Below, one piece after another: positions 13,101 through 19,100 of a stretch of 64,000 bases of DNA. The notes below the pieces were generated by a model. It saw only the letters and a list, made by a program, of their open reading frames with translations. It had not been told where the DNA came from and searched no databases. Each line of letters begins with the position of its first letter. Positions within the stretch are counted from its first letter, which is position 1. The stretch comes from Lumbricus rubellus. Its lineage: Eukaryota; Annelida; Clitellata; Crassiclitellata; Lumbricidae. Both the position numbers and the translations under genes were made by a program. The stretch lies in NCBI GenBank assembly GCA_945859605.1, contig OX243811.1, positions 36,366,250 to 36,430,249 of the forward strand. Direction: 5' to 3'.

Positions 13101-16100
13101 GGATTTAAATTGTTATTTAGTAATATTGTATTGATAGAAAAATATCGGAAATTTTTCGGAAAGTTTCCGGAAAGATACGTCGGAAAGTTTCCGAAAGTTT
13201 CCGGAAAGATATGAAACTTTCCGGGAAAGATTTCCGCCTCACAACACTACAAACTGTAAATCAATTTAGAAATTGTTCTATGAAATTTGCTTATAGTAGG
13301 AGGCGAGAGAGTTGTATATAGAGTGCTCTCGAAGAACAAGTTGGGAGCTGCAAAGGCGTTTCCTGCATCAGTTTCTGCTGCAGCAGCTGATGGTTCTGAT
13401 GCTATCATCACGTCAGCTGAATCGTCGGTGGAATCAACGCCACCGAGGTTGAACTTCCCAGAGACCTGGCTTTGGACAGATGTGGTTGCTGGGTAGGGGA
13501 GCTGGTTGATAGTGGAAAACACATGTTAACATTATCCAATGTCGAGAGAAAACTCCAGTCTCGCTACCCTGATGATGGTTCATGGTCATAGGCGTACGAG
13601 GCGGGGGTGCAGGGGGGCAATTGCCCCCCCAAATTCGGGCAAGTTTGTTGTTTTTTCGGGCAAAAAGCCCCGAATTACTAAAAAAAAGGTCGTCAACTTT
13701 CGGGCAAGTGTCGTTTTTCGGGCAAACACAGACCCGAACGACAAAAAATTTCCCGAATGTATTTTTCGGGCAGAAGTTCAATCTTTGCCCCCCCACTGCT
13801 GAAATATCCCGTACGCCTATGTTCATGGTTGAGTGACAAGTGCATGATGGGACATGTTGCAGATATAATTTGAAGGGACTTAGTAGATTAGATATCACAG
13901 GGGGTTTGTTAAACATGAAATTACTTTTAATTACTCTGTTAGTTGGATAACCTTTCTATTTTCTTGGCTTTTTATGGTTTGACATCCAGATTTTCCTTTT
14001 TTATACTTTTTAAGGATAAAGTTGAAGAAATTTTAGGCCATCGAGTTATTGAGTTCCTAAAATATGGCTGTGAAAACATATAATCGGTTACATAAACATA
14101 TCAAAAGGTTCCTATATAAATGAACCATTACTTAGGGCTAGATTACTCTTAAATGAAAACCAGAAAAGTTGTAATGTATGTAAAAGGACAGTCTGGACTG
14201 TCTTTTTATCCTCTAAACCAAGTTTGTACAACCTGCCAAGAGGTTCATTCAAGGCAGTAAATAAGCATCATGTGACATAGGTCTACTTATGTTCATACCT
14301 ACACACATGCTTTCACGCATACCCGTTACACACAAAGACTTATGCATGCACATACAACGTCGTACATGAACCATGCGTACATGCAAAGATGCATTTGAAC
14401 ACCTTTGTGAGGTTCATGCATTGTTTCTTAAGATCAGTTGTTCTGCTTCTTGTTGTTGATGTCCAAGCTGAATGGCTGAATTTTGAAGTTTACGACATGG
14501 TTGCGTTGTCTGGACCTGCTCCTGACAGTGTTGTTCAGCAGTTCGATTCAAACACGATGATGTCGTCTGAATCATCGGTCGAATTCAGTCCGTCTCCACC
14601 GAGGGTCAACTTCCCAGAAACCTGGCTTTGGACAGATGTGGTTGCTGGGTAGGAGGAGCTGGTTGATAGTGGAAAACACATGTTAACATTATCCAATGTC
14701 AAGAGAAAACTCCAGTCTCGCTACCCAGATGATGGTTCATGGCTGAGTGACAAGTGCATGATGGGACATGTTGCAGATATAATTTGAAGGGGTTTAGTAG
14801 ATTAGATATTATCACAGGGGGTTTGTTAAACATGAAATTACTTTAATTACTCTGTTAGTTGGATAACCTTTCTATTTGCCAGGGATGTGTTTAAGGAATT
14901 TTTAAAACAGCTCAACTTTTTTCCTTTCCCATCATCCATGATAAATGACTTCCAATCGGAGGACAATTACCTTTTTTGCGGACAATTTCCTTTTTTGCTT
15001 GTTTTAACTGTACAGAAGTGCTTTTACAACTGCACATTTTGTGTACAACTGCACGTTAAAGAAAGCCCTGCTATGTTCTTGTTTTTTTAAGGTTTTGATA
15101 CTCGTATTTTCCTTTTTCTACTTTGTAAGGATAAAACTGAAGAAATTTTAGGCCATCGAGTTATTGAGTTTCTAAAATATGGTTGTGAAAACATATAATC
15201 GGTTACATAAACATATCAAAGGGTTCTTATATAAATGAACCATTACTTAGGGCTAGATAACTCTTAAATGAAAACCAGAAAAGTTGTAACGTATGTAAAA
15301 GGACAGTTTACTTTCTGAACTGTCTTTTTATCCTCTAAATCAAGTTTGTGCAACCTGCCAAGAGATTCATTTAAGGCAGTAAATGAGCATCGTGTGACAT
15401 AGGTGATAGGTCTACTTATGTTCATACATACACACATGCTTTCATGCATACCCGGTACACACAAAGGCTTATGCATGCACGTACATGAACCATGCGTACA
15501 TGCAAAGACGAATCTGAACACCTTTGAGAGGTTCATGCATTGTTTCTTAAGATCAGTTGTTCTGCTTCTTCTTGTTGATGTCGAAGCTGAATGGCTGAAT
15601 TTTGAAAATGTCAAAGCGGTTGAGATGTCTGGATCTGTTCGTGGCAGCAGTGTTGTTCAGCAGTTCGATTCAAACACGATGATGTCATCTGAATCATCGG
15701 TTGAATTCAGTCCGTCTCCACCGCGGGTCAACTTCCCAGAAACCTGGCTTTGGACAGATGTGGTTGCTGGGTAGGAGGAGCTGGTTGATAGTGGAAAACA
15801 CATGTTAACATTATCCAATGTCAAGAGAAAACTCCAGTCTCGCTACCCAGATGATGGTTCATGGTTTAGTGACAAGTGCATGATGGGACATGTTGCAAAT
15901 ATTATTTGAAACTTAGTACATTAGATATCACAGGGGGTTTGTTAAACATGAAATTACTTTTAATTACTCTGTTAGTTGGATAACCTTTCTATTTGCTAGG
16001 GCTGTTTTTAAGGAATTTTTAGAACAGTACAGCTCCTTTCCTTTCCCATCATCCATGGAAAATGACTTGCAATCGGAGGACAATGACCTTTTTTGCGGGC

Positions 16101-19100
16101 AGTGACCTTTTTTGCTAGTTTTAACTGTACAGAAGTGCTTTTACAACTGCACATTTTGTGTACAACTGCACGTTAAAGAAAGCCCTGCTATGTTCTTGGT
16201 TTTTTAAAGTTTTGATACCCGTATTTTTCTTATTCTACTTCGTAAGGATAAAACTGAAGAAATTTTAGGCCATCGAGTTATTGAGTTCCTAAAATGTGGC
16301 TGTGAAAACATATAATCGGTTACGTAAACATATCAAAGAGTTTCTCTATAAATGAACCATTACTTAGGGCTAGATTACTCTTAAATGAAAACCAGAAAAG
16401 TTGTGATATATGTAAAAGGACAGTTTATTTTCTGAACTGTCTTTTTATCCTCTAAATCAAGTTTGTACAATCTGCCAAGAGGTTCATTTAAGGCAGTAAA
16501 TGAGCATCATGTGACATGGCTCTACTTATGTTCATACCTACACACATGCTTTCATGCGTAACCGGTACATACTTATGCGTACACATACATGAATCATCCA
16601 TACATACAAAGATGCATTTGATCACCTTTGTGAGATTGATGCATTGTTTCTTAAGACCAGCTGTTCTGCTTCTTGTTGTTGATGTCCATGCTAAACGGGG
16701 GATTTATGCAGCTGGAGATTATAAGGTGTTGGTTGGATCTCGTCTTGTTTATCGGAAGTGCAGTACCACGAGCATGTTTTCTGAATCATCTATCGAATTC
16801 AGTCCATCTCCACCGCGGGTCAACTTCCCAGAGACCTGGCTTTGGACAGATGTTGTGACAGGGTACGGATCACATTTTAAAATGGGTGCTTTGGTGATGC
16901 TTACCCAGTCCGTTGAGAAAAATATTCCACTTGTAATTGTCGTTGTTCTGCCAGTTGTATTCTATTTGGTAGCACAGTAATTGTTATCTATGGCTCGTCA
17001 AGTCAATCAATTGCTCGTTTTTCCTTGATCATGTGGCCAACTAGCTGGCTTGGATCATTGGTATAAATTATGCTGTTTCATATGATCAACTCGATATAAG
17101 ATGTTAAGACAGACAGCTGAGCTCTTTGATATTGAAATATGACTGCAAAGATTCTAATTATTAAGATTCACTTTTATTTTTAAATGTTTAGTGGTGTACT
17201 TGTAAATCACTGTCATTTTGTAATCAAATCATTATGGGTTTGACTCGTTAATAATGACCCTGGCCATGTTGTTTGTGCACAATGCACAATTTGCACATGT
17301 ATGTATCTCTCTGGTCAAGTGGTAAAGTTTTGTACCAATGTAATCTTTGAATCAAATGTCAGGTCTTGCAATGTGCTGGCTCTCTGTCCAGAAACTTTGA
17401 TTCATCTATGACATTCTATGTCATCATTTGTCTCAGGAGCATAAGAAACGGAAGTTAGAATTTCTGCTAAGTTTGCTGTGGTCATGGGACCCTTTACCAG
17501 TTGCTTCCGGCGTGGTTTTTGGTGTTAAGGGATTTGGAGAATCAAGTTAAGGGACAGATTTTATTTATTTATTTCTTGCATTTGCTATGGCGCCCATAAA
17601 GCTCACTACTCAGAAGCGCTCCCAACTACAGCACAGACACTGCATCAGAGTTTCACGCCGAAGCACACAAACAATTGTGAATGAAGGACTTGCTTAAAGT
17701 CCCTATGCGGTGGCTTGAGGTGGATTCGAACCTGAACCATCGAGCTACAAGGCACCGAACCCATTACTACACTATTGCACTCGACAGATTTTGTTTTATA
17801 TTGATCACTTCACTTGTTCTAATCCATTAGGCCACAATGGAAACTATATTGCATAATATGGCCTCTATTTCTATATCAGTAATATCTAGATCTGTTGTTA
17901 ATTGTTGTGTTTTGACAGCAAATTTTCTTGCCAAAAAAGGAAAATAAATTCACCTTTGCAGTTGTGTCCCATGCTCTCTTATGATGTGAGGCTCGTGCAC
18001 TTGCATTTCATTCACTTGACATCTGAATTTAGACGGTCTTTGTACGGTATCTGTTCCATAAGTACTTGAAACCGGTTTTGTTCGCTAGTTTCTTGTGTCA
18101 GGCCACGAATGTCATTGATGAGTTTCTCTAACATAACATAACACAACATGTTTTGTTTTGGCAACCAACACAAAATGTAATAATCACATCAAAATTTACA
18201 TTTTTAATTAGTTGTCGGTTTGCCCAGGTGACCCTAAAAGGTTCAGAGGTCCTGCAAGCCAGGGCCACCTGAGACAATTTGATTGAGAAGAAACTGATCA
18301 GTGATCACGATATGGCCAACCATATTATGTCTGTGAATAAAAATCCAAACTAACTAAGGGATAAATTCATAACTACCATATGAACAGAATATACTTTATA
18401 CAAAAACATACAATTTACAGGCAAACAATGCAAAAGCAAATTTTTTGTAATTCTATAGAATAAACCCATAGTCCCATATGTATTGCTTAGTAAAGAAAAA
18501 CAATTGAAGAGGAGCTAGATAAATCTGTAATGACAACTACAATCCCAACACAGATAGGCAGTATTTCTTGAGTACACGTAGGAGGGAATTATAGTTTTTT
18601 AAAACTCTAGTTGATCAATGGTTTTTAAAAATATACCTCCATGATGTTATTTCAAAACTTATGTTCCATAACTCAAAAGAATTTCTAAACTCGCTCAGCA
18701 TATCACGAGACTGGATTTTTCTCTAAGAAACTTATATGCTTGTCTGTTTCATTGTTAGCTTATTATTCGCTGCACTTAGTATTTGATGGTTGATTTCTTT
18801 TTCGACAAAGGTGCAGTCATTTCAATGAACGTTCAGAAATGCACACACACACAGACACACACACGCACACACACACACACACACACACTTTACTTCATTG
18901 CATTGAAACCAAGCATGTCATTGTTACCGTTTTTTCATTGTGTGACAGTGCGATGCGGCATTCAATTTGTAGGAACTTTGACCTGAGTCTGAAAACTTTT
19001 TTAATATTTACTTAGCACCATCATCTTAACTGGCCTAGTTAGCTACATCGGTAAGCGAGAGTGGCATACGTCTCATGGTTACAACGGACTGCAGTTCAAG

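What the first reader, a model, noticed from the sequence alone, without database searches (positions are those of the whole stretch)
13297..16862. Four tandem alternative bait-region exons in one TEP gene
Exons A-D occupy the same position between exon 12 and exon 14, share phase (1 in, 2 out) and the conserved end ESS(V/I)E...P(R)[13 protein letters not shown], but differ in the upstream bait. The bait is where the target protease cuts, so one gene could make four protease traps with different triggers. Mutually exclusive splicing at this position is established for Drosophila Tep2, and I recall reports for a scallop TEP. Whether it is described in this lineage is unknown to me.
Basis: partly seen in the sequence, partly recalled or inferred. 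Interest (0 to 1): 0.95.

Follow-up and report, generated by a model that had tools for sequence, protein, structure and literature searches.

The report
Four swappable protease-trigger exons, one gene
A gene from what is likely an annelid worm, related to known immune genes, holds four neighbouring copies of one exon that end alike but begin differently; they are predicted to be used one at a time, so that the animal would make four versions of a protein likely set off by different protein-cutting enzymes, and a similar choice of exons is already reported from snails, scallops and flies.

Summary
Four AG...GT exons (A 13297-13492, B 14468-14648, C 15587-15770, D 16712-16862) lie between constant exons 10682-10757 and 19378-19495 of a CD109/TEP-like thioester gene. 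All lengths are 1 mod 3. Of the 16 ways to include or skip them, only the 4 single-exon choices keep the frame past the thioester; the other 12 stop before it. This supports one-at-a-time use, but no RNA was available. Each exon codes a variable bait plus its own copy of the R-x-N-F-P plug that holds alpha-macroglobulins cocked. Sister exons B and C differ at 14 of 39 bait bases, all amino-acid-changing, against 5.6% in their intron and 3 silent changes in the rest of the exon: the likely mark of diversifying selection on the bait, though gene conversion of the flanks is not excluded. The kind is known (Drosophila Tep2, scallop CfTEP, snail BgTEP2 with 12 exons). In scallop and abalone isoforms the variable block ends at, or one residue before, the residue split by our exon edge. 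Listings from my searches of an open-licence library showed no annelid case. New member of a known kind, with an unusually clear selection signal.

The parts
13297..13492 (+). alternative bait+plug exon A (196 nt); variable head [20 protein letters not shown]..., plug [11 protein letters not shown]
14468..14648 (+). alternative bait+plug exon B (181 nt); variable head without K or R
14488..14526 (+). bait core of B: 14 of 39 bases differ from C (15607-15648), all non-synonymous
15587..15770 (+). alternative bait+plug exon C (184 nt)
16712..16862 (+). alternative bait+plug exon D (151 nt); the AG used by B and C reads TG here, a later AG is the likely acceptor; one Cys in the bait
13493..14467 (+). 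intron A-B, carries a ~0.23 kb insertion with terminal inverted repeats (13581-13827) not seen in the two other introns
14649..15586 (+). intron B-C, tandem-duplicated
15771..16711 (+). intron C-D, tandem-duplicated
23005..23181 (+). thioester exon, GCGEQ at about 23061-23075
1..33694 (+). the TEP gene as far as it lies in the window (5' end missing; C-terminal exons after 29436 located by tblastn, junctions not resolved)

Best explanation
Four tandem cassette exons of a CD109/TEP-like thioester gene, in what is likely an annelid, each code a different bait joined to a nearly identical plug and are predicted to be spliced in one at a time, so that one gene would make four proteins whose activation is likely set off by different proteases. 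Shown: exon anatomy, phases, reading-frame logic, tandem origin, conservation of the plug at the amino-acid level, and the concentrated amino-acid-changing divergence of the B and C baits. Inferred: mutually exclusive splicing, in which the frame rule would leave wrong combinations to nonsense-mediated decay; the plug sitting in the central channel as in A2ML1; bait cleavage releasing the plug and firing the thioester. Untested: which proteases cut which bait, and whether the product traps proteases or opsonises.
For: Of 16 exon combinations only A, B, C and D alone stay open through the thioester exon; the other 12 stop before it. Over the last 16 codons pN is below pS in 6 of 6 pairs (pN 0.00-0.07, pS 0.09-0.44). 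B-C bait core: 14 of 39 bases differ, 14 non-synonymous and 0 synonymous; the other 47 codons compared have 3 synonymous and 0 non-synonymous. The intron has 25 of 446, at most 4 in any 39-column window, and 0 of 20000 permutations reach 14 (trimmed alignment). CfTEP B-F: 59 of 59 variable columns lie in one block ending one residue before the residue at our exon edge; 12 abalone records: 57 of 60 variable columns lie in one block ending exactly there, and the other 3 co-vary as two versions of the gene. BgTEP2 has 12 mutually exclusive tandem exons with a conserved C-terminal part (PMC7016707, passages). The R..FP plug passes through the channel in native A2ML1, and cleavage lets it retract (PMC9156758, passages; PMC9352918, passages); R..F is kept in 265 of 268 motif sites in the 284 relatives fetched. 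The window protein falls in a 17-row group (support 99) with the leech, lugworm and Capitella proteins, and in a 5-row group with the leech proteins (89), next to an unnamed transcript-length sequence (100).
Against: No RNA evidence. No docking/selector pairing signal: non-simple 10-mers shared by all three introns and complementary to the flanks occur at about chance (1 found vs 1.4 expected; 2 vs 1.1). The acceptors of B and C are AAG and that of D has a poor pyrimidine tract. Nothing shows that the four baits are cut by different proteases. The core statistic was obtained after trimming 56 ragged bases next to an indel; untrimmed, the intron edge had a window with 15 differences in 39, more than the bait core. 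C and D do not share one history: their exon tails differ at 15 of 99 columns, and at pS 0.34 in the last 16 codons, against 73 of 919 in their intron, which suggests a mosaic with gene conversion. None of the 8 annelid proteins fetched has more than one plug in its model.
Confidence: 0.78

Rival explanations
1. Only one or two of the exons are used; the others are young duplicates on the way to decay.
For: B and C are recent copies; B and C use AAG acceptors and D has lost the acceptor that B and C use. No transcripts were seen.
Against: All four keep AG/GT, phase and an open frame. Outside the core, B and C have 0 non-synonymous changes in 110.7 sites, chance 0.0017 at the intron rate. In pairs with D the plug has pN 0.03-0.07 against pS 0.34-0.44.
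Confidence: 0.12
2. The bait of B and C was not driven apart by selection; B and C are older, and gene conversion has homogenised the flanks, or a short tract was pasted in from elsewhere.
For: The divergent block is sharply bounded, 39 bases, with identical bases on both sides. C and D show that intron and exon can have different histories here: exon tail 15 of 99 against intron 73 of 919. Conversion is common in tandem arrays (general knowledge).
Against: 14 of 14 changes are amino-acid-changing (chance 0.017 given random placement), and the block coincides with the bait and keeps the frame with a whole-codon indel. Under conversion, the sparing of the bait alone would itself need selection for difference.
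Confidence: 0.25
3. The diversity adjusts regulated self-processing or receptor shedding by the animal's own proteases (CD109-like role), not detection of foreign proteases.
For: Database names are CD109; [quoted passage not shown]
Against: Amino-acid-changing divergence of baits fits an arms race better than fixed self-processing; scallop isoforms are reported to respond to challenge in a pathogen-dependent way (PMC7016707, passage, citing others).
Confidence: 0.25
4. Two or more of the exons are joined in one mRNA, giving a longer bait.
For: 10 of 284 relatives fetched have two or three plug motifs in a row in their protein models.
Against: Here 11 of 11 multiple combinations, and skipping, meet a stop before the thioester; the models are mostly predictions and may be artefacts of joining exclusive exons.
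Confidence: 0.03

Closest known systems
BgTEP2 of the snail Biomphalaria glabrata (12 mutually exclusive bait exons; PMC7016707, passages read)
   Same: Tandem alternative exons at the bait position, variable in length and composition, with a strongly conserved C-terminal part
   Different: 12 exons over 30 kb with transcripts; here 4 over 3.6 kb, likely annelid, no transcripts
CfTEP of the scallop Chlamys (Azumapecten) farreri; isoforms B-F in the database (P0193, P0194, P0196, P0199, P0206)
   Same: Variation confined to one block (59 of 59 variable columns) that ends one residue before the residue at which our exons end (six residues after FPETWLW, before the (V/A)DG)
   Different: Mollusc; seven isoforms from six mutually exclusive exons as reported in PMC7016707 (passage, citing others); exon coordinates not examined here
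Haliotis rufescens CD109-like isoforms (P0138, P0140 and 10 more records)
   Same: Alternative baits in a constant protein; block ends exactly at our exon edge
   Different: Mollusc; database isoform records only, gene structure not examined
Drosophila Tep2, five isoforms from exon 5 (PMC5489563, passage)
   Same: Alternative exons for the hypervariable bait-like region
   Different: Arthropod; not compared at sequence level here
CD109 and A2M/A2ML1 (solved structures)
   Same: Domain order, thioester, R..FPETW plug after the bait
   Different: Tandem alternative bait exons are not known to me in these genes (recalled; not searched)

Membership tests
alpha-macroglobulin / thioester protein superfamily | MG, A2M and thioester (TED) domains in order with GCGEQ | tested here: met
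   Pfam MG3, A2M_BRD, A2M, TED_complement all above cut-off (on a rough 800-residue concatenation); GCGEQ in exon 23005-23181
alpha-macroglobulin / thioester protein superfamily | R-x-x-F-P plug after the bait | tested here: met
   PRLNFPETW or PRVNFPETW in all four exons, aligned with A2M and CD109
CD109 / insect-type TEP class | closest to CD109-like rather than C3 or A2M | tested here: met
   best PDB matches CD109, E 2.4e-123, against 7.2e-87 for A2M and 2.3e-41 for C3; best named database relatives are mostly called CD109
CD109 / insect-type TEP class | C-terminal cysteine cluster (iTEP) or GPI signal (CD109), as in PMC7016707 (passage) | tested here: inconclusive
   ICEECPQCC is read near 33.69 kb in one frame and aligned by tblastn to the Helobdella end ACPQCC; GPI signal not tested, last junction unresolved
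TEP with mutually exclusive tandem bait exons (Tep2/CfTEP/BgTEP2 kind) | tandem exons at the bait with equal phases and a shared end | tested here: met
TEP with mutually exclusive tandem bait exons (Tep2/CfTEP/BgTEP2 kind) | transcripts that contain one exon each | not testable with these tools
   no RNA data; only the frame rule (4 of 16 combinations open)
protease trap | bait cleaved by proteases and protease inhibited | not testable with these tools
   only residue content compared

The most novel reading that the evidence does not exclude
The alternative unit is a whole trigger cassette, bait plus plug, that has been swapped in and out of one conserved slot in bilaterian TEPs; in this likely annelid, sister cassettes are being driven apart by selection in the bait alone while the plug is frozen, so a single gene keeps generating new protease triggers by exon duplication, a small germ-line repertoire of protease sensors.
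Probability: 0.48. Interest if true: 0.6.

Novelty: new member of a known kind. Interest (0 to 1): 0.42.

Why it matters
It extends a known way of diversifying innate immune effectors, probably to annelids, and offers a reason why the conserved end lies inside every alternative exon: it is the plug that the trigger mechanism needs. The B/C pair isolates the diverged bait residues almost without background, giving a direct way to test whether baits evolve to meet particular proteases.

Tried and rejected
Docking/selector RNA pairing between the flanking introns and all three inter-exon introns: no signal beyond chance at 10-mers, against single-base shuffles. An error of mine made every combination look closed (one downstream junction was off by one base); corrected. 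The first divergence scans also flagged a ragged intron edge next to an indel, 15 of 39; I trimmed the first 56 bases (13956-14011) and repeated it. A three-unit MAFFT alignment misaligned the A-B intron around its insertion, so identities were taken from blastn. A fifth decayed exon: no further FPETWLW-like site in six frames. A candidate exon near 4606-4656 in my first gene model was dropped because the neighbouring exons join in frame without it. Whole-genome context could not be examined. Protein structure prediction and fold search were not tried: by the tool's description spliced proteins do not count as the window's own, and single proteins are limited to 1200 residues, which the close full-length relatives exceed. 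I lowered the main confidence from 0.80 to 0.78 and raised the conversion rival from 0.20 to 0.25 because the C-D exon tail is more diverged than the C-D intron.

Full report
Observation. Reading the window directly and translating it confirms four AG...GT exons at the stated coordinates, with lengths 196, 181, 184 and 151, all 1 mod 3, phase 1 in and 2 out. They lie between a constant exon 10682-10757 and a constant exon 19378-19495. The stretch is a tandem array with about 1.12 kb spacing. Intron A-B has an insertion of about 0.23 kb with terminal inverted repeats that the other two introns lack, so it arrived after the duplication or was lost from the others.

The gene. Joining the exons found in the window gives a 1110-residue protein without a stop (exon list). 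The gene starts left of the window, and its last exons, after 29436, were located but not joined. Pfam finds MG3, the A2M bait-region domain, A2M and the thioester domain, all above cut-off (run on a rough 800-residue version). The best solved relatives are CD109 chains. Each protein search listed only its best 120. The closest relative is an unnamed transcript-length sequence at 57% identity; the closest named ones are CD109-like proteins of Arenicola (42%), Helobdella (39-43%), Capitella (39%) and many molluscs (about 37-40% over the full length). A quick tree of 32 rows puts the window protein with that unnamed sequence (support 100), in a 17-row group holding Helobdella, Arenicola and Capitella (support 99), apart from the molluscs. 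The tree warned of long branches meeting at Capitella. I call the source 'likely annelid'.

Reading-frame logic. I tested all 16 include/skip combinations through the downstream exons to 29436. Exactly four, each single exon, remain open past the thioester; skipping, 6 pairs, 4 triples and the quadruple, 12 of 12, stop before it. Mutual exclusivity is therefore built into the frame, though the splicing itself was not seen. The gaps of 938-975 nt between exons are too long for simple steric hindrance (general knowledge). All sites are GT-AG. I found no sign of the intron pairing that controls Dscam exons (the Dscam comparison is recalled), but with one genome that test is weak.

What the exon encodes. 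Alignment to CD109, A2M and A2ML1 chains puts the variable head at the bait and the conserved end at the segment behind it. In native A2ML1 the residues Arg730-Pro734 pass through a narrow channel as a hydrophobic plug, and bait cleavage lets it retract, which is proposed to set off the conformational change (PMC9156758, passages). [quoted passage not shown] Every one of the four exons carries PR(L/V)NFPETWLW. R and F of this motif are kept at 265 of 268 motif sites among the 284 relatives fetched (30 of the 284 have no motif by my pattern). So the natural description of the unit is bait plus plug; that our plug sits in the same channel is inference from alignment.

Selection. B and C are the most similar pair. 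Over 446 aligned intron columns they differ at 25 (5.6%), and no 39-column intron window has more than 4 differences. The 39 bases of the bait core have 14 (36%); 0 of 20000 permutations reach that. All 14 change the amino acid, and one codon is inserted or lost. In the other 47 codons compared there are three differences, all silent. Fisher's exact chance of that split is 0.0015. The scan depends on leaving out 56 ragged bases at an indel edge, where an untrimmed window had 15 of 39. Between C and D the head differs at 36 of 73 columns, the tail at 15 of 99 and the intron at 73 of 919. Part of D's head is displaced because the acceptor AG of B and C reads TG in D, and the tail being more diverged than the intron says that the two do not share one history, so conversion or unequal crossing-over has probably mixed the array. 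At the amino-acid level the plug is kept: pN 0.00-0.07 against pS 0.09-0.44 in the six pairs over 16 codons. Gene conversion of the flanks is the main alternative to selection in B/C and cannot be ruled out with one genome.

Bait content. Variable heads have 5, 0, 2 and 4 basic residues in A, B, C and D, and D alone has a cysteine. This predicts, but does not show, different protease sensitivities.

Comparison with what is known. Drosophila Tep2 makes five isoforms from exon 5 (PMC5489563, passage). BgTEP2 has 12 mutually exclusive exons over 30 kb with a strongly conserved C-terminal part, and the scallop CfTEP makes seven isoforms from six mutually exclusive exons (PMC7016707, passages). In the five CfTEP isoforms examined, 59 of 59 variable columns lie in one block that ends one residue before the residue split at our exon edge; in the largest group of Haliotis rufescens records (12 of 23 examined), 57 of 60 variable columns lie in one block that ends exactly there, and the other three co-vary as two versions of the gene. 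Ten of 284 relatives, from molluscs, a bryozoan, an amphioxus, a brittle star and a nematode, have two or three plugs in a row in their protein model, which I read as joined alternative exons; that is inference. None of the 8 annelid proteins fetched shows it. The kind is thus known and seems widespread. No title or abstract start in the listings I saw pointed to an annelid case: one search listed 20 of 69 papers, 15 of 22, 3 of 3 and 8 of 8; I opened none of these for annelids except PMC7016707 and PMC2685406 (passages). Searches asked about the kind in general. The library holds open-licence papers only.

Verdict. Observation confirmed, interpretation supported with the caution that 'trap' is not shown. 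New member of a known kind; interest lies in the clean B/C signal and in the bait-plus-plug reading.

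Noticed in passing
window 35068-37509 (+): Open frame of about 813 residues with a reverse transcriptase domain (PF00078, E 5.6e-37), a LINE-like element downstream of the TEP gene.
   Followed up: partly
window 8844-10659: A 1.8 kb stretch with 15-nt terminal inverted repeats and a weak hAT dimerisation remnant (PF05699, E 0.0046, below cut-off) sits in the intron before the last constant exon.
   Followed up: partly
window 12143-13236: Arrays of TTTCCGGAAA units in inverted orientation bound a 1.1 kb stretch that ends about 60 nt upstream of the acceptor of exon A.
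   Followed up: no
window 7871-7999: The exon before the last constant exon lacks the RRKR/RKKR-like basic site seen at this position in Helobdella P0001, Nucella P0028 and Solemya P0038; it reads [10 protein letters not shown], so the protein may not be cut there by furin-like enzymes.
   Followed up: no
P0007 (Strongylocentrotus purpuratus CD109 model), residues about 365-450: Three tandem near-copies of FVGVLAIDKSVLLLADGNDITHNQES, upstream of the bait: another tandem-exon array or a model artefact.
   Followed up: no
window about 59850-59997 (+): MGSCLRTPTQDDISLLRG... resembles the N-terminus of RNF11 from memory; Pfam gave no hit.
   Followed up: no
P0205 (Watersipora), P0220 (Branchiostoma), P0242 (Amphiura), P0251 (Tegillarca), P0024 (Halicephalobus) and five others: 10 of 284 relatives carry two or three FPETW plugs in a row with different baits, a cheap signature for finding tandem bait exons in other genomes.
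   Followed up: partly
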